Shown here one piece after another: positions 5,628 through 15,078 of a stretch of DNA of 64,000 bases. The stretch covers positions 62,001 to 126,000 of the forward strand of contig NZ_JACSNP010000005.1 of assembly GCF_016900045.1 (NCBI RefSeq), read 5' to 3'. How positions within the stretch are numbered: the stretch's first letter is position 1; the number at the start of each line of letters is the position of its first letter. The translations under genes were made by a program, and so were the position numbers. The notes beneath the pieces were generated by a model. It was given only the letters and a program-made list of their open reading frames with translations. It ran no database searches and had not been told where the DNA came from. The stretch is from Fusobacterium mortiferum. Its GTDB lineage: Bacteria; Fusobacteriota; Fusobacteriia; Fusobacteriales; Fusobacteriaceae.

Positions 5628-5972
5628 TTAAAATTTCATTTTAGAAAAATGTTCTTTTCCAGCTCCACAAGGTGGGCATACCCAATCTTTAGAAAGCTCT
5701 TCAAAAGAGGTACCAGCCGGAATACCATGTTCGATATCACCAACATTAGGGTCATAGACATAACCACAAATTTCACACATATATAGCTCTTTTTTATTTT
5801 CTTTTTGATATTCTACAACTTCAGAAAAGTGTTCTTTAGATACACCACAAGGTGGACAAAGCCAATTTTCAGGAAGTTCTTCAAAAGAGGTACCAGCCGG
5901 AATACCATGTTCGATATCACCAATATTAGGGTCGTAGACATAACCGCAGACTTCACATACATATTTTTTCAT
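5628..5972 (-). CDS. tandem double rubredoxin
   Basis: A 114-aa small iron protein made of two complete rubredoxin domains. Each has the two metal-binding pairs: [10 protein letters not shown] and CPPCGVSK in domain 1 (residues 4-49), [10 protein letters not shown] and CPPCGAGK in domain 2 (about 66-111). A short charged linker ([10 protein letters not shown]) joins them. Rubredoxins hold one iron on four cysteines and carry single electrons, often to oxygen- or peroxide-reducing enzymes in anaerobes. Most are single-domain proteins of about 52 residues. The DNA of the two domains shares a 60-base block with only two differences, described under findings. GGAGGTTTAAA precedes the ATG. Confidence 0.95.
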
Positions 5973-6143: not shown

Positions 6144-7307
6144 ATGAAAGTTTTAAAGATTTTAATGTTACAAATAATGGTAGGTACTATAGCTTTAAGT
6201 TTTTCTGGTCAACCAGATTGGTCAACTGTAGCGGTATATGATAATAAAATTCCTGAGAATATAGTGATGAATATAAAATATCCAGAACATCCAGAAGTAT
6301 TAGATTATATATTTATACGGTCAAGAACAGCAAATCTTAGAGATGAGCCAAGTACACAAGGAAAAATTATAGGGAAATATCCATATGATACAAAGTTAAA
6401 AGCTATAGAAAAGGTATTGAATTATGGAAATTTATGGTACTATGTGGAAGACTCACAAGGGAATAGAGGATATATATCAGCTAATGTTGCAAGAAAAAGA
6501 ATATTCAGATTTCAAAAAGCAATGGATAAAATAGCTGAATTAGAAAAATTTATACAAAGCCAAAGAGAATTAGGAAGAGAGGTTATTAGTACCAACTCGT
6601 ATGTTCCTAATCCTAATAACCAAAACTTTAAAAGACAAAAGGATAAGTATGGAACAAGTTTAGATCAAAGTAGTATAGGAAAATCAGTTGTAGATGGAGA
6701 GGAGATATATATTCCAGATAGAGCAATACTATCTGTAATAGAAAAAGGAGAAAAAACTTCAAGAATAAAAGTAGCGAGTATTCCGGAGGAATTAATTGTG
6801 GATAACTCAACTTTATCAAGAAACCCTAAGATACAGAATGAATTTTCTAAGGTAGTTGCAATTGATGTAGCAAACCAAAATATGATGGTATTTGAGAAAA
6901 ATAGTGAGGATATTTGGGAAGTTATATCCTATGTATACAGTAAGACAGGAATAGAGAGTAAGCTTGGATTTGAAACACCGAAGGGATTTTTCATATCGCC
7001 ATTAGCTAAATATATTATGCCATACAATAGTGAAATAGGAGAAAAAGAGGGATATGCAAGATATGCTATAAGATTTTCCGGTGGAGGATATTTACATGGA
7101 ACTCCTATTAACTATGATGAGGAGATAAATAAAGAGTTCTTTATGAAACAAAAGGAAAAAACTTTAGGGACTTTTACAGGAACTAGAAAGTGTATAAGAA
7201 CTACTGAGGGACATGCAAGATTTCTTTTTAACTGGGTTGTAGAGAAACCGAATAATAATTATAATGAACAAAGACCAACTGAAAATGTTATGTTTATAAT
7301 TTTTTAA
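6144..7307 (+). CDS. SH3-domain L,D-transpeptidase (YkuD-like) envelope protein
   Basis: The 387-aa exported protein has a signal peptide (residues about 1-20), a bacterial SH3 domain at about 58-119 (TANLRDEPSTQGKIIGKYP, NLWYYVEDSQGNRGYI) and a C-terminal YkuD-type domain from about residue 220. In this family a Cys in H-G-x(n)-S-H/x-G-C forms 3-3 cross-links or anchors proteins to peptidoglycan. Here HGT (His318) and TRKCIRT (Cys350) are present, but the usual Ser-x-Gly before the Cys is Thr-Arg-Lys. The TPKGFF and AIRFSGG segments also fit the fold. The change may alter activity or substrate. A tiny lipoprotein gene follows 12 bases downstream. Confidence 0.8.
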   Translation: MKVLKILMLQIMVGTIALSFSGQPDWSTVAVYDNKIPENIVMNIKYPEHPEVLDYIFIRSRTANLRDEPSTQGKIIGKYPYDTKLKAIEKVLNYGNLWYYVEDSQGNRGYISANVARKRIFRFQKAMDKIAELEKFIQSQRELGREVISTNSYVPNPNNQNFKRQKDKYGTSLDQSSIGKSVVDGEEIYIPDRAILSVIEKGEKTSRIKVASIPEELIVDNSTLSRNPKIQNEFSKVVAIDVANQNMMVFEKNSEDIWEVISYVYSKTGIESKLGFETPKGFFISPLAKYIMPYNSEIGEKEGYARYAIRFSGGGYLHGTPINYDEEINKEFFMKQKEKTLGTFTGTRKCIRTTEGHARFLFNWVVEKPNNNYNEQRPTENVMFIIF

Positions 7308-7708: not shown

Positions 7709-7737
7709 TTGAAATATGAAATTAAATATGCTATAAT
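7709..7737 (+). promoter_or_regulatory. strong promoter heading the DUF116-to-dnaB gene array
   Basis: TTGAAA at 7709-7714 and a perfect TATAAT at 7732-7737 are spaced by 17 bases, and a TG at 7729-7730 gives an extended -10. It is the best promoter-like sequence ahead of the co-directional genes 7869-20988. Confidence 0.75.
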
Positions 7738-7868: not shown

Positions 7869-8402
7869 ATGAGAGGAAACTTTCTTACAAAATTAACTTA
7901 TGAAATGTATTATCTGATGTTTGCTATTTCCGAAAGAAGAAAAAAGCAAAAAGAGATAAATAATATAGCTAATAAATTTTTAAAATATAACAATGAAAGA
8001 GTTTTAAAAAGTATAGAAAAGAAAAAGATAAATAAGGTATTAATACTTTTACCTCATTGTTTACAAAGATACGTTTGTCCACTTAAAGTAACTTCAAGTA
8101 TTGAAAATTGTAAGAAATGTGGACAATGTGTGATAGGGGATTTTTTGAATATAAAATCAGAATTCCCTGTAGAGGTAAAAATAGCGACTGGGGGAACATT
8201 AGCTAGAAAACATATAAAAGATACAAGGCCAGATTTAGTTATGGCAGTAGCCTGTAAAAGAGATTTAGTATCAGGAATACATGATGCTTACCCAGTAAAT
8301 GTTTATGGAATATTTAATGAAATTCCAAATGAACCATGTATAGATACTACAGTATCTATAGAAAAGGTTAGAGAGTTTTTAAATAAGATATTTGTGGATT
8401 AG
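7869..8402 (+). CDS. DUF116 family cysteine-rich protein
   Basis: The 177-aa protein matches DUF116: VLILLPHCLQRYVCP at about residue 57, a second cysteine cluster ENCKKCGQCVIGDF, a PVEVKIATGGTLARK segment and DLVMAVACKRDLVSGI. The cysteines suggest a metal or iron-sulfur site, as inferred for the family; no reaction is established. The N-terminal 25 residues are basic and amphipathic rather than a signal peptide. It heads a long co-directional array and is followed 11 bases later by the TPR protein gene. GAGGGAGAAA precedes the ATG. Confidence 0.85.
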   Translation: MRGNFLTKLTYEMYYLMFAISERRKKQKEINNIANKFLKYNNERVLKSIEKKKINKVLILLPHCLQRYVCPLKVTSSIENCKKCGQCVIGDFLNIKSEFPVEVKIATGGTLARKHIKDTRPDLVMAVACKRDLVSGIHDAYPVNVYGIFNEIPNEPCIDTTVSIEKVREFLNKIFVD

Positions 8403-8413
8403 GAGGGGAAAAT

Positions 8414-11242
8414 TTGAAGAAGAGATATTTTTTATTAGCTCTTATGTTTGCAATGGGAGTTTCAAGTTTTGCATCTGAGAGAGATGATTTAGCCTTTGTA
8501 GATGAGTTGTATAAGCAAAAAAAATTTGATATGGCAATAGTAGAATCGAAAAGTTTTTTAGATAAGTATCCTAACTCTAAATATAATAAAAGTATTCAAG
8601 ATAGAATAGCGAAAGTATATTTTTTAACATGGGATTATCAAAATGCTATCAAATATTTTAAAATATTATTAATGAATAATGATCTAAAAGAAAAAGAGAA
8701 AAATGAAATTAGGTACTATTTAGTTAGATGTTATGCTGGAATAGGTGATAAGAAGTCTAGTGATGAATATTTAAAATTGATAGATAGTAAAAATGAATAT
8801 TATGAAAAGGCTATCTATGATACAGGAACTACTTATTTAAGTAATGAGAATTATCCATTGGCAGAAGAAGCTTTTCAAAAAGTTATAGTTTTAAATGGAA
8901 AGTATTATAATGAGGCTATATTGAGTATGGCATTATTATCATATAATAAAGGTGATTATAATAGAAGTATAGCTTATCTAAATGAATATGCACAATTAAA
9001 AGGTAAGAAAAATATGATTTTTATGAACTATCTTTTAGGATCATCATACTATAAATTAGATCAAGTAGATTTAGCTAGCAGATATTTTGAGGAAGCAGTA
9101 AAAGAAGATAAGGAGAGTCCTTATGGGAAAAAAGCTATTTTAAATCTTATAGAAATTTATAGTAATAAGGGAGAGATAGCTAAGGTAGAAGAAAAGATTG
9201 AATTAATAAAGGGAACAACTGACTATAACGAAGGAATGAGGATACTAGGAGATTCCTTTGCAACAAAGGGAGAATATAGTAAAGCGATTGAATGTTATAA
9301 TAAAACAGATGATTTTAGTAATCCTAAATTACTTTATAGTTATGGATTTTCTTTATATAAATTAGATAATTTAAAAGATGCCCAAACATATTTTGAAAGT
9401 TTAAAAAGTAGTTCATATTATAATCAAGCTATCTATTATATTTTTGCAATTGATTATAAATTAGGAAATTATAAGAAAATAATTCAAAATAGAGCAGAGG
9501 TAAAAAAAGTTAATGTTAATCAACAAGATATGGAGAATATAAATATAATTATAGCTAATTCTGCATATGAAGTTGGAGATTATAAGCTTTCAAGGGAATA
9601 CTATAGTAAAAATTACAATTTGAAGCCAAATAAAGAGAGTTTGTATAGAATAATTGTTATAGATAACAAACTAGAAGATTTAGAGGATATAAAAGCTAAA
9701 TTTTCTGAATATAAGAGTAAGTTTTCAACAGATACCCAGTATAAAAAAAATATATATCTGTCTGTAGGAGAGGTATATTATAAAAAAGGAATGTTGAAAG
9801 AGAGTTCGCAGGTATACAAAGAGTATTTAAGTACACAAAAAGATTTTGATATTTTAAATAATCTAGTTACAGTATTACTTGCACAACAAAATTATAGTGA
9901 AATGATGACTTATTTAGAAGAGGGAGATAATTCACCTAACAGTGTTTACTTAAAGGGAATAGCTTCTATGGGAATGGGAAAATACTCGGATGCAAATGGT
10001 TATTATTTAGCTGTTGAACAAGATAGTACAACTTCTCCAGAGCTAATGGAAAAAGTAAAATTTAATAAGTTAAGAAACTCTTTTCTATGGCAAAAATATT
10101 CAGATGCAATAAAATATGGTGAGGAGTATTTAACTCAGTATCCAAATGGAGAAAATAGAGCAGAGGTATTAGATAAGACAGCAATAAGTTACTTTAGATT
10201 AGACAATGTAGAAAAAAGTAAAGAGTATTACACTCAATTGCAAGGAATTTTAAATTATAGTGAGTATGCAAGCTTCCAAATAGCTGATCTTTATTATGCT
10301 CAAGGAAAATATGATGAAGCCTTAGTAAGATATAAGGAGATATTTACAAAATATCCAAATGGAATATATAGTGAGAGTGCAAACTATTGGTATTTAAACT
10401 CTTTAATAAACTTAGGTAAATTTGATGAGTTTGAAAAGGAAAAAGAGTTTTTCTTAAAAAAATATCCTAAATCTAATATGAGAGAGAGTTTATATATATT
10501 GACAGGACAGCTTTATGAAAGAAAGGGAGAGAAACAAAACTCTTTGGCTACATATGAAAAATTATATGATATATCTAAAGATACAGCTGTGAAAGAGGAA
10601 ACTGCAACAAAAATATTAGATATTCAATTGGCTACTAATAAATTGGATGAAGCAGTGAAATATATAGCTGGTATAGGAAATATAGAGATTAAAAGTTATT
10701 ATAATTCTCAACTTTATGAAAAACAAGGAAAGAAAGCTGAAGCTCTTAAAGAATATGAAACATTATTTACAGGAACTAAGTATAAGGATTTTGCTGGAGT
10801 AAACTTAGGTGATTACTATTTTAACAATAAAAACTATGAAGAAGCTAAAGTATATTATTCAGGAGTAGAGAGTTTAGAGAGTAGTCCATATAAGGATTAT
10901 GTGTTATATCAGCTTTCAAATATCGATGAGTTGGAAGGAAAAAATGAAAGTGCATTAAGAGGATATACAAAGGGGTATGTTTTATTTAATGGAGAATATT
11001 CAAATTTATCTAAATTAAAGGCAGCTCAACTAAATGAAAAATTAGGAAAAGAGGAAGATGCTATAAAGCTTTATAAAGAGTTATATTCACTTCCAAAGTT
11101 TCAGTATAGAAGTTTTATTTTGGAAAAAATGATTTTCTATACTTTAAAAAGTGGAAATAAGATAGAAGCTAAAAAATATTATAATGAGCTTCAAAAAATA
11201 GATGAACAAGCTTCGGTAAAATATAATCAATTTTTTAATTAG
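8414..11242 (+). CDS. 942-aa exported TPR-repeat protein of the TonB/ExbBD cluster
   Basis: A signal peptide (MKKRYFLLALMFAMGVSSFA) leads into an almost unbroken series of tetratricopeptide-like helical repeats, with recurring units such as YKEIFTKYPNGIYSESANYW and a Y-P-N/K-S motif typical of TPR_6 and CpoB/BamD-like proteins. It is therefore predicted to be a large periplasmic scaffold. The start is TTG 8414, supported by AGGAGGGG at 8401-8408. It is followed by a small membrane protein and then exbB, exbD and tonB, which argues for a role beside the proton-driven outer-membrane machine, as CpoB acts beside Tol-Pal. No enzymatic motif is visible. The length is unusual for a Tol-associated TPR protein. 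Confidence 0.85.
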   Translation: MKKRYFLLALMFAMGVSSFASERDDLAFVDELYKQKKFDMAIVESKSFLDKYPNSKYNKSIQDRIAKVYFLTWDYQNAIKYFKILLMNNDLKEKEKNEIRYYLVRCYAGIGDKKSSDEYLKLIDSKNEYYEKAIYDTGTTYLSNENYPLAEEAFQKVIVLNGKYYNEAILSMALLSYNKGDYNRSIAYLNEYAQLKGKKNMIFMNYLLGSSYYKLDQVDLASRYFEEAVKEDKESPYGKKAILNLIEIYSNKGEIAKVEEKIELIKGTTDYNEGMRILGDSFATKGEYSKAIECYNKTDDFSNPKLLYSYGFSLYKLDNLKDAQTYFESLKSSSYYNQAIYYIFAIDYKLGNYKKIIQNRAEVKKVNVNQQDMENINIIIANSAYEVGDYKLSREYYSKNYNLKPNKESLYRIIVIDNKLEDLEDIKAKFSEYKSKFSTDTQYKKNIYLSVGEVYYKKGMLKESSQVYKEYLSTQKDFDILNNLVTVLLAQQNYSEMMTYLEEGDNSPNSVYLKGIASMGMGKYSDANGYYLAVEQDSTTSPELMEKVKFNKLRNSFLWQKYSDAIKYGEEYLTQYPNGENRAEVLDKTAISYFRLDNVEKSKEYYTQLQGILNYSEYASFQIADLYYAQGKYDEALVRYKEIFTKYPNGIYSESANYWYLNSLINLGKFDEFEKEKEFFLKKYPKSNMRESLYILTGQLYERKGEKQNSLATYEKLYDISKDTAVKEETATKILDIQLATNKLDEAVKYIAGIGNIEIKSYYNSQLYEKQGKKAEALKEYETLFTGTKYKDFAGVNLGDYYFNNKNYEEAKVYYSGVESLESSPYKDYVLYQLSNIDELEGKNESALRGYTKGYVLFNGEYSNLSKLKAAQLNEKLGKEEDAIKLYKELYSLPKFQYRSFILEKMIFYTLKSGNKIEAKKYYNELQKIDEQASVKYNQFFN

Positions 11243-11254
11243 GAGGAGAATAGT

Positions 11255-11599
11255 ATGAGAAAAGCAGTAACAATATTATTTTTATTATCAGCAATGTGTG
11301 CTGTAGGAGCTGAAGAAGGGATAACAGCACTTGATAAAGAGGTACAAGGGATAAATAAAGAGCAATTAGAGATAAGAGAGATACCTACTGAAGAGGTCAT
11401 TTTAGAAGGGCAAAAAGTTGAGTCAGGAGCTATTAAAGTAACTAACGACAATTATCAAAACCAGAATCAAAAGATTAAAGTTGTACAGGGAGACAAGTCG
11501 GCTTTAGAAGATGAATTATCACAAGGTGTAGAAAAAAAATCGTTTTGGAAATATATTATAGGTGGATTAGGAGTAGTAGCTCTAATAATAGCATTATAA
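11255..11599 (+). CDS. small exported protein with C-terminal membrane anchor
   Basis: The 114-aa protein has a signal peptide (MRKAVTILFLLSAMCAVGA), a polar, Glu/Gln/Lys-rich middle of about 75 residues, and a C-terminal hydrophobic segment (YIIGGLGVVALIIAL) that ends the protein. After signal cleavage it would be a single-pass protein with its body in the periplasm. I do not recognise the family. AGGAGGAGAATAGT precedes ATG 11255, and the gene sits between the TPR and exbB genes, so a coupling role in that complex is possible but unproven. Confidence 0.75.
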   Translation: MRKAVTILFLLSAMCAVGAEEGITALDKEVQGINKEQLEIREIPTEEVILEGQKVESGAIKVTNDNYQNQNQKIKVVQGDKSALEDELSQGVEKKSFWKYIIGGLGVVALIIAL

Positions 11600-11668
11600 T
11601 ATTTGATTCATAAATTTATTTAAAATTTATTGGGAGATTGGAATAATTTTACAATATTAGGAGGAGTA

Positions 11669-12280
11669 ATGTACTATTTAACAAATGGTGGAATGCTAAT
11701 GTATGTTATACTTGCTATGTCTATAGTAGGTCTTGGGGCAGTTATTGAAAGATTTATCTATTTTAAGAAAAATGAACAAAATAATAGAAGCTTTTTAACT
11801 AAGGATATAAAAGAACAATTAGATAATAAAAAGATAAAAGAACTAGTTATTATGCTAAATAAGGAGAGATGTTCTGTTTCTAGGGTATTAAAAGAGGTAC
11901 TATATGAGCTTTATAGAAATCCGAATTCAACACCTGAAAAGTTAGAGGAAAAAGGAAAAGAAAAAGCTATGTTACAACTTATAGCTTTAGAGAAAAATAT
12001 GTGGATAATCTCTTTAGCTGCTCATTTAACTCCTCTTGTAGGGCTACTTGGAACGGTAACAGGTATGATTAAAGCTTTCCAAGCTGTATCTGTTCATGGA
12101 ACTGGAGATCCTTCGGTGTTAGCTAGAGGTATATCTGAGGCACTGTTTACAACTGCTGGAGGACTATTTGTGGCAATACCAGCTCTTATTTTTTATAACT
12201 ATTTTAATAAAAAAATAGAAAAGATAATATCTGATATGGAGATAACAACAACTGAACTTATAAATTATTTTAGAAAATAG
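11669..12280 (+). CDS. exbB: ExbB/TolQ proton-channel subunit
   Basis: MotA/TolQ/ExbB family protein of 203 aa that, with ExbD, converts the proton gradient into motion of TonB. Three membrane segments are visible at about residues 10-28, 112-135 and 152-175. The family core HLTPLVGLLGTVTGMIKAFQ and the following GISEALFTTAGGLFVAIPAL are intact. The start is ATG 11669, five bases after AGGAGG; an upstream TTG-initiated frame at 11630 lacks a ribosome site. Order exbB-exbD-tonB is canonical. ExbB rather than TolQ is preferred only because a TonB-like gene, not TolA, follows. Confidence 0.92.
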   Translation: MYYLTNGGMLMYVILAMSIVGLGAVIERFIYFKKNEQNNRSFLTKDIKEQLDNKKIKELVIMLNKERCSVSRVLKEVLYELYRNPNSTPEKLEEKGKEKAMLQLIALEKNMWIISLAAHLTPLVGLLGTVTGMIKAFQAVSVHGTGDPSVLARGISEALFTTAGGLFVAIPALIFYNYFNKKIEKIISDMEITTTELINYFRK

Positions 12281-12289
12281 GAGAGTATT

Positions 12290-12721
12290 ATGAAGTTAGA
12301 GAGACGTAAGAGAAAAGATGAGTTGATGCTTGAACTTACATCACTTATAGATGTTGTATTTCTTCTATTAATATTTTTCTTAGTGGCAACTACCTTTGAT
12401 GATATGAAAGGTGGAATCAAGATTGACTTGCCACAATCAACAATAAAAGAGGTATCAGAGGTAAAAGAGGTACAAATTGTTGTAGATAAAGATAAAAATA
12501 TGATACTTAACTATAAGGAAAATGGTAAGAAAGAGCAAATAAGTGTAACTACTGAAAATCTAAAGGAAAAACTAGCAGAAAAACTATCTGAATCTCAAGA
12601 GAGAAACGTAATTATAAGTGCAGATAAAAGATTAGATTATGGATATATAGTAGAGATAATGACTATATCAAAGGAAGCTGGTGCTAATTCTTTAGATATA
12701 GATACTGCTGATAAAAAATAA
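12290..12721 (+). CDS. exbD: ExbD/TolR proton-channel subunit
   Basis: The 143-aa protein has one N-terminal membrane segment preceded by basic residues. It carries the conserved ELTSLIDVVFLLLIFF motif, whose Asp is the proton-carrying residue of the family. The periplasmic part follows, with VDLP-like IDLPQ, VIISADKRLDYGYIVEIM and a terminal DTADKK. In other species ExbD forms the channel core inside an ExbB pentamer. It begins nine bases after exbB and ends ten bases before tonB, indicating one operon. Confidence 0.93.
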   Translation: MKLERRKRKDELMLELTSLIDVVFLLLIFFLVATTFDDMKGGIKIDLPQSTIKEVSEVKEVQIVVDKDKNMILNYKENGKKEQISVTTENLKEKLAEKLSESQERNVIISADKRLDYGYIVEIMTISKEAGANSLDIDTADKK

Positions 12722-12731
12722 GGAGGAGTTT

Positions 12732-13670
12732 ATGAAAAAAGAGGAAAAAATTAGTTTACTCCTTTCAGCAATAATAAATTTAGTTATAGTTTTTTTGATT
12801 CCAGGATTATCAAATAATCAAATTGAGAATAAAAAGATAAAAATAGGATTGGTAAATTATGACAATCAAAATAGAACAAAGTTAGAGGGAGAAAGAAATA
12901 GTAATAGCTCTCAAAAGAAAAATACGGAAGAGGTAAAAAAGAAAAATCCACCACCAAAAGAGCAACCTAAAGTAGAAGTGAAGACAGAGAAAAAGGTGGA
13001 GAAAAAAGTAGAGGAAAAACCAGTAGGAAAGTCTACGGAGAAGATAGATTTATCAGCTCTTAATAGTATAGCAAATAATATGTCAACTCCACAAGTACAA
13101 GTGATGACTGTTAAACATCCTGATGGAGGATATAGAGAGATAATAAAATTGGAGGCTCCTAAAAAGGAGTTACAAAGTGGAGTAGTAACAAAGGGAGGAT
13201 TAAATAAAGAAATAACGCTATCAAAGGAATTAATCTCGGTAGAGAATGAAAAATTAGAGTTAAAAGATGATAATAAAATAGCTTTTAACTCTGAAATAGG
13301 TAAGGACTCTTCTTTTGATAGGATATTAGAAATATCGGGAGAGATAGAGGGGTTACCTAGTGGTTATAAATTGGGAACAGAAGATGGAGATATAGTAGCT
13401 AAATGGGATAGTGGTAATAAGGAGCCTGTATATCCAGAATCAGCCCAATTAAAAGGGTTACACGGTAGTGTAAAAATTAGAATGAACATTGATGAAAATG
13501 GGAATGTTAAGGAGCTTAGACTTGAAAGAGGAAGTGGTGTTCCTGAAATAAATAATGCAATTGAAGAAGTGGGAAGAACTTGGAAAATTTATTTGAGCAA
13601 AAATGGACTTAGTGTAAAAGGAGATGTAATATTAGAATATAATTTTACATTGAAAGGGAAAGTAAATTAG
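12732..13670 (+). CDS. tonB: TonB-family energy transducer
   Basis: The 312-aa protein has an N-terminal membrane anchor (ISLLLSAIINLVIVFLIPGL), a long Lys/Glu/Pro-rich stretch at about residues 55-100 (KKNPPPKEQPKVEVKTEKK) able to span the periplasm, and a C-terminal TonB domain: YPESAQLKGLHGSVKIRM, NIDENGNVKELRLERGSG and a final beta strand. The usual S-x-x-x-H of the TonB anchor reads S-A-I-I-N here, so the histidine is replaced by Asn. It would transmit energy to outer-membrane receptors, none of which is clearly encoded in the window. Confidence 0.88.
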   Translation: MKKEEKISLLLSAIINLVIVFLIPGLSNNQIENKKIKIGLVNYDNQNRTKLEGERNSNSSQKKNTEEVKKKNPPPKEQPKVEVKTEKKVEKKVEEKPVGKSTEKIDLSALNSIANNMSTPQVQVMTVKHPDGGYREIIKLEAPKKELQSGVVTKGGLNKEITLSKELISVENEKLELKDDNKIAFNSEIGKDSSFDRILEISGEIEGLPSGYKLGTEDGDIVAKWDSGNKEPVYPESAQLKGLHGSVKIRMNIDENGNVKELRLERGSGVPEINNAIEEVGRTWKIYLSKNGLSVKGDVILEYNFTLKGKVN

Positions 13671-13686
13671 TAAAGAGGTGGAAAAA

Positions 13687-15078
13687 TTGGTTCTTTTAGG
13701 ATTTAGATTGGAGAGAAGTTTAAAAGAGGAATTAGAGAATAATTATGAAAATGAGTTGACTTTTGCTGATAATATAAGTGATTTTATAGATTATTTGAAA
13801 AATAAAAAATATGAAGCTATTATAATTGAGGAGAAGAATTTACAAGAAGAAGCTTTAATAAATCTTATAAAAAAGGTAGGAGAGTATCAGAAAAAAGGAG
13901 TTATAATTGTTTTGGGAGAAACTTCTAATTTGAAAGTTGTAGCTGGAAGTGTAAAAGCTGGAGCGTATGACTATATTTTAAAACCTATAGAAACACCTAC
14001 TATAATAAAAATTATAGAGAAATCTGTAAAGGATTATAAACTTTTAGCTGAGAGAATAGATAAACATAAAAGTTCAGGAGATAAACTTATCGGACAGACA
14101 AAAGAGATAGTAGAGTTATACAAAATGATAGGAAAAGTTGCAACAAGTAGAGTTCCAGTTCTAGTAGTAGGAGAGAAGGGAACAGGAAAAACAAGTGTAG
14201 CTAAAGCTATTCATCAATTTAGTGATTGGTCAAATAAGCCTTTAATAAGTCTAAATTGTACATCTTTCCACAATGATTTATTGGAAAGAAAGATGTTTGG
14301 GTATGAAAAGGGAGCTTTTAAAGGAGCAGTATTTCCTCAAATAGGTGAATTAGAAAAAGCTAATGGAGGAACTTTACACTTAGGAAATATAGAATCATTA
14401 AGTCTAGATCTTCAATCTAAAGTTTTATATTTTTTAGAAGAGGGAGAATTTTTCAGAATGGGAGGAGCTGAACCTATAAAGATAGATATAAGAGTTGTAG
14501 CTACTACCTGTGAAAATTTAGAGGAATTAATTAATCAAGGGAAGTTCATAGATGAACTATATAGAAAGTTAAGAGTTTTGGAGGTAAATATTCCTCCACT
14601 TAGAGATAGAAAAGATGATATTCCTTTAATAGTGGATCATTATTTATTAGAGTGTAATGATGAGTTACATAAAAATGTTAAAGGAGTTAGTAAACCAGCA
14701 TTAAAAAAAATGATGAGATATGATTGGCCTGGAAATGTAAATGAGCTAAAAAATGCTGTAAAATCTGCTGTGGCACTTTGCAGAGGGACTTCTATATTGA
14801 TTGAGGATTTACCAAGTAATGTCTTAGGAACTAAAATTACTAAGAAAAAAGGTGAAGGACAGATCTATGATTTAAAAGAATGGATAAAATCGGAGATATT
14901 AGAATATAAAAATAATAATCAAGGTGATTATTATGGAAATATAATATCGAAAGTAGAAAAAGAGTTGATTCGTCAAGTTCTTGAGATGACTAATGGAAAA
15001 AAGGTAGAAACTGCAGAGATATTAGGTATAACAAGAAATACTTTAAGAACAAAGATGAGCAACTATGGTTTGGAGTAA
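13687..15078 (+). CDS. NtrC-type response regulator with degenerate receiver and AAA+ sites
   Basis: Layout is receiver, AAA+ domain and Fis-type helix-turn-helix (VETAEILGITRNTLRTKM), as in sigma-54 activators. Several key residues are changed. The receiver has IIIEEKN where the phosphorylated Asp is expected. Walker A reads GEKGTGKT, GAFTGA reads GAFKGA (Lys codon 14320), and Walker B reads GGTLHLGN in place of GGTLFLDE (codons 14383-14388). The arginine-finger region reads FIDELYRKL instead of FRxDLxxRL. ATP-driven activation of sigma-54 polymerase is thus unlikely, and a sigma-54-independent regulator is inferred. TTG 13687 follows GAGGTG; GTG 13678 is an alternative start. It sits between tonB and dnaX. 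Confidence 0.85.
   Translation: MVLLGFRLERSLKEELENNYENELTFADNISDFIDYLKNKKYEAIIIEEKNLQEEALINLIKKVGEYQKKGVIIVLGETSNLKVVAGSVKAGAYDYILKPIETPTIIKIIEKSVKDYKLLAERIDKHKSSGDKLIGQTKEIVELYKMIGKVATSRVPVLVVGEKGTGKTSVAKAIHQFSDWSNKPLISLNCTSFHNDLLERKMFGYEKGAFKGAVFPQIGELEKANGGTLHLGNIESLSLDLQSKVLYFLEEGEFFRMGGAEPIKIDIRVVATTCENLEELINQGKFIDELYRKLRVLEVNIPPLRDRKDDIPLIVDHYLLECNDELHKNVKGVSKPALKKMMRYDWPGNVNELKNAVKSAVALCRGTSILIEDLPSNVLGTKITKKKGEGQIYDLKEWIKSEILEYKNNNQGDYYGNIISKVEKELIRQVLEMTNGKKVETAEILGITRNTLRTKMSNYGLE

What the first reader, a model, noticed from the sequence alone, without database searches (positions are those of the whole stretch)
8414..13670. Large periplasmic TPR protein and a two-ended small protein are built into an ExbB-ExbD-TonB operon
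A 942-aa TPR protein and a 114-aa exported protein directly precede exbB, exbD and tonB with 8-70-base gaps. In Proteobacteria, TPR protein CpoB goes with TolQRAB-Pal; here it seems attached to a TonB set, with no receptor or TolB/Pal beside it. The TonB anchor also has Asn where the energy-coupling His is expected. The set could be a Fusobacterial hybrid of Tol and Ton machines.
Basis: inference. Interest (0 to 1): 0.5.

Follow-up and report, generated by a model that had tools for sequence, protein, structure and literature searches.

The report
Fusobacterial TPR-TonB motor with swapped partner
In fusobacteria a proton-driven TonB motor is encoded with a huge periplasmic scaffold protein and one partner protein, and that partner seems to have changed once in evolution from an outer-membrane barrel to a very small protein, which may show how a nutrient-import machine can turn into an envelope-maintenance machine.

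Summary
The genes are real and correctly placed; ExbB probably starts at 11669. They sit in a longer gene run (DUF116 before, NtrC-like and DnaX after) whose TPR-slot-ExbB-ExbD-TonB core is found in 60 of 98 Fusobacteriota genomes, 56 of 61 in the window's family. The new point is the slot between TPR and ExbB. It holds either the ~114-aa protein (51 genomes) or an outer-membrane barrel resembling a TonB-dependent receptor without its plug (8 genomes; one more slot is masked), never both in one genome. Barrel genomes are basal and small-protein genomes form one clade, so the swap was probably single. Both proteins share a 14-residue motif after the signal peptide, strong in one barrel genus, weak in the rest. 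Eight operon-bearing genomes have a single ExbB and no detectable plug-type receptor, seven of them 91-100% complete, so classical receptor-dependent import cannot be the operon's only job. TolB_N is undetected in 94 of 98. The Asn in TonB is widespread and, by a paper title, fully replaces His20 in E. coli. 'Tol/Ton hybrid' is partly supported: a Ton motor, perhaps doing Tol-like work, not a Tol system. TPR proteins beside Ton motors are known (Vibrio TtpD2).

The parts
7709..7737 (+). best sigma-70-like promoter match upstream of the gene run (11 of 12, TG before the second hexamer)
   Evidence: consensus scan only, no proof of function; 56 promoter-like sites found against 43.5 expected
7869..8402 (+). 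DUF116 protein, 177 aa, first gene of the run
   Evidence: PF01976 161.9 bits; DUF116 detected in 49 of 60 loci (G046 counted as two contigs, window not counted, some loci cut by contig ends)
8414..11242 (+). exported TPR protein, 942 aa, TTG start behind AGGAGGGG; signal peptide then TPR solenoid
   Evidence: many TPR families over cut-off; single-sequence fold all-helical from residue 22 to 940 but low confidence, mean pLDDT 55.1
11255..11599 (+). 114-aa small exported protein, 'SP114'
   Evidence: no Pfam or NCBIfam family above cut-off; profile finds one strong copy in each of 51 genomes
11330..11371 (+). conserved N-terminal motif of SP114, LDKEVQGINKEQLE (residues 26-39), shared with barrel proteins
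11543..11596 (+). C-terminal hydrophobic stretch of SP114 (present in 43 of 49 distinct orthologs by a hydropathy threshold)
   Evidence: PF01618 109.6 bits; RBS
12290..12721 (+). exbD, 143 aa
   Evidence: PF02472 97.0 bits
12732..13670 (+). tonB, 312 aa: N-terminal membrane helix, ~200-residue linker region, TonB C-terminal domain
   Evidence: PF03544 48.6 bits at residues 231-307; linker lengths
12777..12779 (+). codon of Asn16 in the TonB membrane helix, at the position of E. coli His20
   Evidence: sequence, orthologs
13422..13652 (+). TonB C-terminal domain
13678..15078 (+). NtrC-like regulator, 466 aa, GAFKGA in place of GAFTGA
   Evidence: PF00158 182.8 bits; motif

Best explanation
This is a conserved proton-driven Ton-type trans-envelope machine of Fusobacteriota. 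ExbB and ExbD form the inner-membrane motor. TonB carries force across the periplasm. The ~945-aa TPR protein is a periplasmic scaffold. The gene between TPR and exbB encodes the machine's dedicated partner. In the ancestral form, still seen in basal genera, that partner is a TonB-dependent-receptor-like outer-membrane barrel with no detectable plug and a short motif at its mature N-terminus, where receptors carry the TonB box. Once, before most Fusobacteriaceae radiated, the barrel was lost or replaced. A ~114-aa exported protein keeps the N-terminal motif and usually ends in a hydrophobic stretch likely to sit in a membrane. The window has this derived form. Most likely job: coupling the proton gradient to upkeep of the envelope (Tol-like work) rather than nutrient import. 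Shown by computation: gene order, slot exclusivity, phyletic pattern, shared motif (strong in one barrel genus), weak barrel likeness to receptors, retention without detectable plug-type receptors. Inferred: complex formation, motif binding to TonB or TPR, membrane insertion of SP114, derivation of SP114 from the barrel protein, envelope role.
For: Core order in 60 of 98 genomes. SP114 profile: strong hits (45.9 bits or more) in 51 genomes, one each, beside ExbB; none in the 8 barrel genomes. Barrel profile: strong hits (140 bits or more) in those 8 only, in the slot; four of the eight are its seeds. SP114 genomes are one clade on an ExbB+ExbD+TPR+NtrC tree (FastTree support 1.00) and on an independent DnaX tree (84/85, one change). 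An SP114-only 14-column matrix scores 19.1 and 13.8 on the G046 and G045 barrels against a best of 4.1 among 210 background proteins, many of them orthologs of each other; G039 scores 6.3 and four others 0.6-2.3 (2-3 background proteins as high). Barrel against nine fusobacterial receptors: hhalign probability 82.5%, E 1e-5, aligned from the end of the plug to the C-terminus, controls 0.3% and 0.2%; 5 of 6 weak PDB sequence hits are TonB-dependent receptors. Single ExbB and no Plug hit in eight operon genomes: G041, G042, G044, G051, G039, G001, G097 (91-100% complete) and G045 (70%). TolB_N not found in 94 of 98.
Against: The motif is short; a 73-column SP114 core profile did not separate barrels from background, the genome search with the full SP114 profile did not find the barrel N-termini, and the G001 barrel scores within background (9 of 210 as high). 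N-termini of nine plug-type receptors of this phylum do not match the motif, so 'TonB box' rests on position alone. Barrel likeness to receptors is sub-threshold in Pfam (19.2 against 27 bits), and the G097 barrel frame holds two stops. Six of 49 SP114 lack the hydrophobic tail. No functional data for this operon were found; the published F. nucleatum tonB deletion appears to hit the other TonB. TonB kept a similar linker length after the swap (median 195 in 49 SP114 rows, 202 in 8 barrel rows), so nothing shows that it stopped reaching the outer membrane.
Confidence: 0.5

Rival explanations
1. It is an ordinary TonB system that energises TonB-dependent receptors encoded elsewhere; the TPR protein is an accessory like Vibrio TtpD2 and the 114-aa protein a minor helper.
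For: TtpD2, a TPR protein encoded with the V. vulnificus TonB2 system, is essential for siderophore uptake through it (PMC6957404, passages). 75 of 98 genomes have a Plug domain; the window's own genome has one.
Against: Eight operon-bearing genomes have this as their only ExbB and no Plug hit. The window's genome has a second, His-bearing TonB system. The Plug search used one Pfam family at E 0.001, so divergent receptors could be missed.
Confidence: 0.2
2. SP114 is not derived from the barrel: the barrel gene was deleted and an unrelated small gene took its place; the shared N-terminal motif is chance or convergence on the same binding partner.
For: Longer profile comparison failed; the motif is about 14 residues; outside g10 and g7 the barrels reach only 0.8-1.4 in the basal genera g15 and g16, 0.6 in g29 and -2.5 in g28.
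Against: Same position just after the signal peptide, same gene slot, and the strongest matches lie in g10, which groups with g7 (0.80) as sister to the SP114 clade on the tree (unresolved on the DnaX tree). Strict pattern in 4 of 8 barrels and 40 of 49 SP114 against 0 of 201 background proteins (in which the G039 N-terminus was mis-started).
Confidence: 0.35
3. It is a true Tol system, or a Tol/Ton hybrid, with the TPR protein as CpoB.
For: TPR protein passes the YbgF model, 120.1 against 90.1 bits; OmpA domains occur in 96 of 98 genomes.
Against: TolB_N found weakly in 4 of 98 genomes only (19.5-24.1 bits); the transducer passes TonB_C and TonB_Cterm while the TolA model gives 19.5 against 59.45 bits; CpoB model 29.7 against 383; no OmpA/Pal-like domain among the eight window proteins scanned; the TolQ-like motor score is shared by the paralog.
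Confidence: 0.1

Closest known systems
Vibrio TonB2 system with TtpB, TtpC and TtpD (PMC6957404)
   Same: ExbB-ExbD-TonB set encoded with a TPR protein and further components
   Different: TtpD2 is 425 aa. That TtpC is a long ExbB and TtpB a DUF3450 protein is recalled; loci of that build from Desulfobacterota here have a 452-522-aa ExbB, DUF3450 in the two tested (L103, L132) and a TPR gene after tonB. Here the TPR protein is ~945 aa and comes first, ExbB is short, and the partner is SP114 or a barrel.
Tol-Pal with CpoB/YbgF
   Same: PMF-driven motor, force transducer and periplasmic TPR protein; retained where plug-type receptors are undetected
   Different: no TolB hit, no Pal in the gene run, TonB-type C-terminal domain, TPR protein over three times the length of the CpoB model (263 positions)
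TPR-ExbB-ExbD clusters of Omnitrophota (L098, L101, L104, L107, L115, L119) and of L130, titled Planctomycetales
   Same: same order: 800-876-aa TPR gene, exbB, exbD, then a ~200-240-aa gene; two of these were tested: L101 passes TonB_Cterm (38.4 against 27.1), L104 is below TonB_C cut-off (21.6 against 24.6)
   Different: no called gene in the slot; their ExbBs lie apart from the group that holds all fusobacterial ExbBs of that tree, so the arrangement probably arose independently
PVC vWA force transducers beside TPR and TolQR-like genes (PMC12204202, passages)
   Same: TPR gene next to a TolQR-like motor of unknown role
   Different: vWA transducer instead of TonB
Proposed origin of TolB from an outer-membrane protein with a TolB-like domain by loss of its barrel (PMC12204202, section 9)
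   Same: barrel loss in the outer-membrane partner of a Ton/Tol motor
   Different: different partner protein and phylum; here genes of both states survive in the same operon slot

Membership tests
Ton system | ExbB proton-channel subunit | tested here: met
   PF01618 109.6 bits
Ton system | ExbD subunit | tested here: met
   PF02472 97.0 bits
Ton system | TonB C-terminal domain on an N-terminally anchored protein | tested here: met
   PF03544 48.6 bits; hydrophobic N-terminal helix by hydropathy, modelled at residues 3-22 in an otherwise poor fold
Ton system | His in the transducer's membrane helix (SxxxH) | tested here: not met
   Asn16 in the window; Asn in 10 of 18 genera, His in 6, Ser 1, Tyr 1. 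Asn is reported to replace His20 fully in E. coli (title only), so this does not exclude function.
Ton system | works on TonB-dependent receptors with a plug | tested here: inconclusive
   no receptor in the gene run; one Plug hit in the own genome; eight single-ExbB operon genomes with none
Tol-Pal system | TolB | tested here: not met
   no PF04052 match in the own genome; weak in 4 of 98
Tol-Pal system | Pal beside or with the motor genes | tested here: inconclusive
   OmpA domain in 96 of 98 genomes, one in the own genome on another contig; none among the eight window proteins scanned
Tol-Pal system | CpoB: trimerisation domain plus TPR | tested here: not met
   no PF16331 among hits; NF008068 29.7 against 383 bits
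Vibrio TonB2-type (Ttp) system | long ExbB (TtpC) and DUF3450 (TtpB) | tested here: not met
   the window's ExbB is 203-216 aa and none of the eight window proteins scanned has DUF3450; window-type ExbBs are 184-204 aa
TonB-dependent receptor (for the barrel of basal genera) | receptor barrel | tested here: inconclusive
   PF00593 19.2 against 27 bits in G040, 11.3 in G001, no such hit in G062 and G063; hhalign 82.5%
TonB-dependent receptor (for the barrel of basal genera) | plug domain | tested here: not met
   no PF07715 hit at E up to 1 in six barrel ORFs from five genomes
this fusobacterial TPR-Ton machine | SP114 contacts TonB or TPR | not testable with these tools
   no complex prediction or experiment available

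The most novel reading that the evidence does not exclude
Fusobacteria made an independent Ton-to-Tol-like transition: the outer-membrane barrel served by a Ton motor lost its barrel once, leaving a very small motif-bearing protein tied to the inner membrane and to a giant TPR scaffold, so that a nutrient-type motor now works for envelope upkeep without any receptor, TolB or Pal. Both end states survive in living genera in one gene slot.
Probability: 0.3. Interest if true: 0.75.

Novelty: new variant of a known kind. Interest (0 to 1): 0.58.

Why it matters
How Tol-type envelope machines arose from Ton-type importers is an open question; a 2025 paper proposes barrel loss for TolB from structure comparisons (PMC12204202). 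Here before-and-after states may exist as whole operons in living relatives, which makes the question testable. It also points to a candidate envelope machine in a phylum where TolB is barely detectable, and warns that the published F. nucleatum tonB mutant probably concerns the other TonB.

Tried and rejected
Motor class by NCBIfam (TolQ/TolR best) was dropped as evidence because the paralog scores the same way. A longer profile of the SP114 core against the barrels failed. The idea that TonB no longer spans the periplasm in SP114 genomes was dropped: linker lengths are alike. The idea that Asn came with SP114 was dropped: g10 has barrel plus Asn, g9 and g14 have SP114 plus His; five changes on the DnaX tree, with the residue assigned by genus. 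A common origin with the Omnitrophota TPR-ExbB sets was not supported.

The published carbenicillin-sensitive tonB deletion of F. nucleatum (PMC11705814, abstract, outline and passages) looked at first like a phenotype for this operon. Its primers match none of the 17 loci tried exactly. Its junction primer encodes an exbD end TFYE-stop; two g6 paralog ExbDs (L094, L211) end so exactly, 12 further paralogs end in NFYE, NYYE or NFNE, and no window-type ExbD listed does. So I do not use it. Two TPR proteins co-purified with FtsX and EnvC in F. nucleatum (PMC5915739, section 10), but I could not tell whether either is this one.

AlphaFold2 on single sequences was poor: TonB mean pLDDT 35.8, TPR 55.1, so no fold search was run.
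Full report
What is there. The window holds DUF116, a 942-aa TPR protein, a 114-aa protein (SP114 below), ExbB, ExbD, TonB, an NtrC-like regulator and DnaX on one strand with gaps of 6 to 69 bases (ExbB start taken at 11669). Pfam confirms TPR, MotA_ExbB, ExbD, TonB_C, DUF116 and Sigma54_activat; DnaX is named from its sequence, not searched. SP114 matches no family above cut-off. No terminator-like site was found between 7300 and 15200; the best promoter-like site precedes DUF116.

The genome. It has two ExbB and two TonB genes: this set, and one on contig C155 whose TonB has His in its helix and whose upstream gene encodes a patatin-Omp85 protein. It has one Plug domain, on contig C133, no TolB_N match and one OmpA domain.

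Conservation. ExbB was searched in 98 Fusobacteriota genomes (83 with a match) and 78 regions were taken around hits (not every paralogous hit was taken). Own profiles labelled 79 loci. The TPR-slot-ExbB-ExbD-TonB order occurs in 60 of 98 genomes: 51 with SP114 (the window's included), 8 with a barrel, and G047, whose slot reads N. Some are cut by contig ends: G013, G021, G051 and G061 in part, and in G046 the TPR and ExbB parts lie on two contigs. In the window's family f1 this is 56 of 61; not found in G012 (93% complete), G015, G024, G056 and G060 (62-82% complete). The four other small families (f2, f3, f5, f6; one genome each) have the barrel form. In f4 (33 genomes) there is no strong hit to SP114 or barrel, and in the six f4 loci read (L083-L088) ExbB is not preceded by the TPR gene. 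L096, a named Fusobacteriaceae MAG (UBA2433), shows the same order; its labels and contig length equal those of G057 (L192), so it was not counted.

The slot. SP114 and the barrel exclude each other genome-wide. Strong SP114 hits (45.9 bits or more) are in 51 genomes, one each; the 8 barrel genomes have none. The next hits are at 26.7 bits or less and begin at or near the signal-peptide end of the profile. Strong barrel hits (140 bits or more) are in 8 genomes, four of which gave the seeds. G097 has a further hit of 65.6 bits on another contig and G046 one of 49.2 bits, the other piece of its split gene; the rest, 33.1 bits or less, lie mostly in 650-726-aa open frames (one of 196 aa), matching the profile's C-terminal third or so. 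Six barrels read intact or nearly so at 510-582 aa; that of G097 holds two stops (open frames of 244 and 303 aa) and that of G046 is split between contigs. On a FastTree tree of ExbB+ExbD+TPR+NtrC (55 rows, rooted on G001, G046 not in it) the seven barrel genomes are basal and all SP114 genomes form one clade with support 1.00. A DnaX tree (54 rows, IQ-TREE) agrees: one change, support 84/85, with warnings about long branches. Parsimony therefore gives one barrel-to-SP114 change.

Is SP114 a remnant of the barrel protein? Aligned SP114s share a conserved motif after the signal peptide, typically IDKEVTGVNKEQLE. Barrels carry ITKDVIGVNEKNYT (G045), VNKEVQGVNQKVYT (G046), ISTEVKGELKKVYN (G040) and weaker versions at the same place. 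A strict pattern is in 40 of 49 SP114, 4 of 8 barrels and 0 of 201 background exported-like proteins (there G039 was mis-started and so missed). A matrix from SP114 alone scores 19.1 (G046), 13.8 (G045), 6.3 (G039), 2.3 (G040), 1.4 (G063), 0.8 (G062), 0.6 (G097) and -2.5 (G001), against 210 background proteins with a best of 4.1; shuffles of the same stretch reach the score in 0, 1, 10, 55, 58, 90, 62 and 260 of 2000. The background holds many orthologs of each other. Against this: the longer core profile did not rank the barrels above background, and nine plug-type receptors' N-termini do not carry the motif. I hold derivation from the barrel protein as likelier than not.

What the barrel is. 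By eye: signal peptide, a polar segment of roughly 80-100 residues, then a strand-rich stretch with a receptor-like C-terminus. Pfam gives receptor barrel at 19.2 bits (cut-off 27) for G040 and 11.3 for G001, nothing for G062 at E up to 1, for G063 only a 14.1-bit phage outer-membrane-protein hit, and no plug in six ORFs. Profile comparison of five barrels with nine fusobacterial receptors: 82.5%, E 1e-5, over 442 columns from the end of the plug to the C-terminus; controls 0.3% and 0.2%. Five of six weak PDB sequence hits (E 0.066-1.5) are TonB-dependent receptors. No model was made.

Not only for receptors. Plug domains occur in 75 of 98 genomes. G041, G042, G044, G051, G039, G001 and G097 (91-100% complete) plus G045 (70%) have one ExbB, of this type, and no Plug hit; G021, the window's own species, has two ExbBs and no Plug hit. 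In three of these (G039, G001, G045) the barrel beside ExbB is the only hit of the barrel and Plug searches.

TonB helix. Asn is at the SxxxH position in 10 of 18 genera, His in 6, Ser in g6, Tyr in g28. Of 15 other TonB-like proteins read beside other fusobacterial ExbBs, 14 have His and one (L084, family f4) has Asn. The cryo-EM paper places His20 against ExbB Ser34 and Trp38 (PMC12215075, passages). [quoted passage not shown] paper not held).

Known relatives. Vibrio TtpD2 is a TPR protein essential in the TonB2 system (PMC6957404, passages). Many Desulfobacterota, Fibrobacter and other loci have a long ExbB, and several a TPR gene further on. On a midpoint-rooted ExbB tree all fusobacterial ExbBs, both types, group together (0.94) apart from the group with the Omnitrophota loci (0.95). 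So a TPR protein beside a Ton motor is not new as such. A 2025 paper describes TPR genes beside TolQR-vWA sets and proposes that TolB came from an outer-membrane protein by barrel loss (PMC12204202, passages and section 9); its main text names Fusobacteria once, in a list of phyla with TonB.

In print? Searches for Fusobacterium or Fusobacteria with TonB, ExbB, tetratricopeptide, Tol-Pal and YbgF, for Ilyobacter with TonB, for TPR with ExbB operons and for plugless receptors listed no paper that, from title, abstract start or the passages I read, describes this operon or the slot swap. One search listed 20 of 462 papers. The library holds only openly licensed PMC papers.

Verdict. Observation confirmed; interpretation partly supported. 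Most likely a Ton-type motor with a TPR scaffold whose outer-membrane partner was swapped for SP114, probably doing envelope work. My odds: anatomy and phyletic pattern about 0.85, derivation of SP114 from the barrel about 0.6, the envelope role about 0.45.

Noticed in passing
window 13678-15078 and orthologs: The NtrC-like regulator behind tonB has GAFKGA; of 56 rows with this gene GAFTGA is intact in 5, and in 12 the pattern did not match at all. The three g8 genomes keep the gene but have no sigma-54 hit; the window's genome has one. It may act without sigma-54.
   Followed up: partly
G000 contig C155, locus L095: The second ExbB-ExbD-TonB set, with His in TonB, follows a 763-aa patatin-Omp85 protein, a build recalled from type Vd autotransporters.
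   Followed up: partly
PMC11705814 primers against loci L094, L211: The F. nucleatum tonB deletion with carbenicillin sensitivity seems to affect the paralogous system: its junction encodes TFYE-stop, the end of the paralog ExbD.
   Followed up: yes
SP114 of G049, G048, G037, G038, G017, G016: Six SP114s lack the hydrophobic tail and end in short tails such as SFWQKIKDFFTGE, in three genera (g4, g6, g11).
   Followed up: partly
TonB of g11 (loci L048, L060): Just after the membrane helix these TonBs read KEVVGKIKVGLV or QEVVGKIKVGLV, the two best background matches to the SP114 motif.
   Followed up: no
G097 contig C134, locus L089: The barrel frame is broken by a TGA and a TAA; decay or sequence error was not told apart.
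   Followed up: no
window 5628-5972, minus strand: 114-aa protein that looks like two rubredoxin domains in tandem (motif recalled, not searched).
   Followed up: no
window 6144-7307: SH3 plus YkuD (L,D-transpeptidase-like) protein upstream of DUF116. Many other loci have genes of about 333, 274 and 373 aa there instead; in the one tested, L059, they are a glycerol-3-phosphate dehydrogenase, a sigma-70 factor and a DNA polymerase III beta-like protein.
   Followed up: no
G044, G045, G046, G056: Weak TolB_N-like hits (19.5-24.1 bits) in 312-320-aa open frames; not examined.
   Followed up: no
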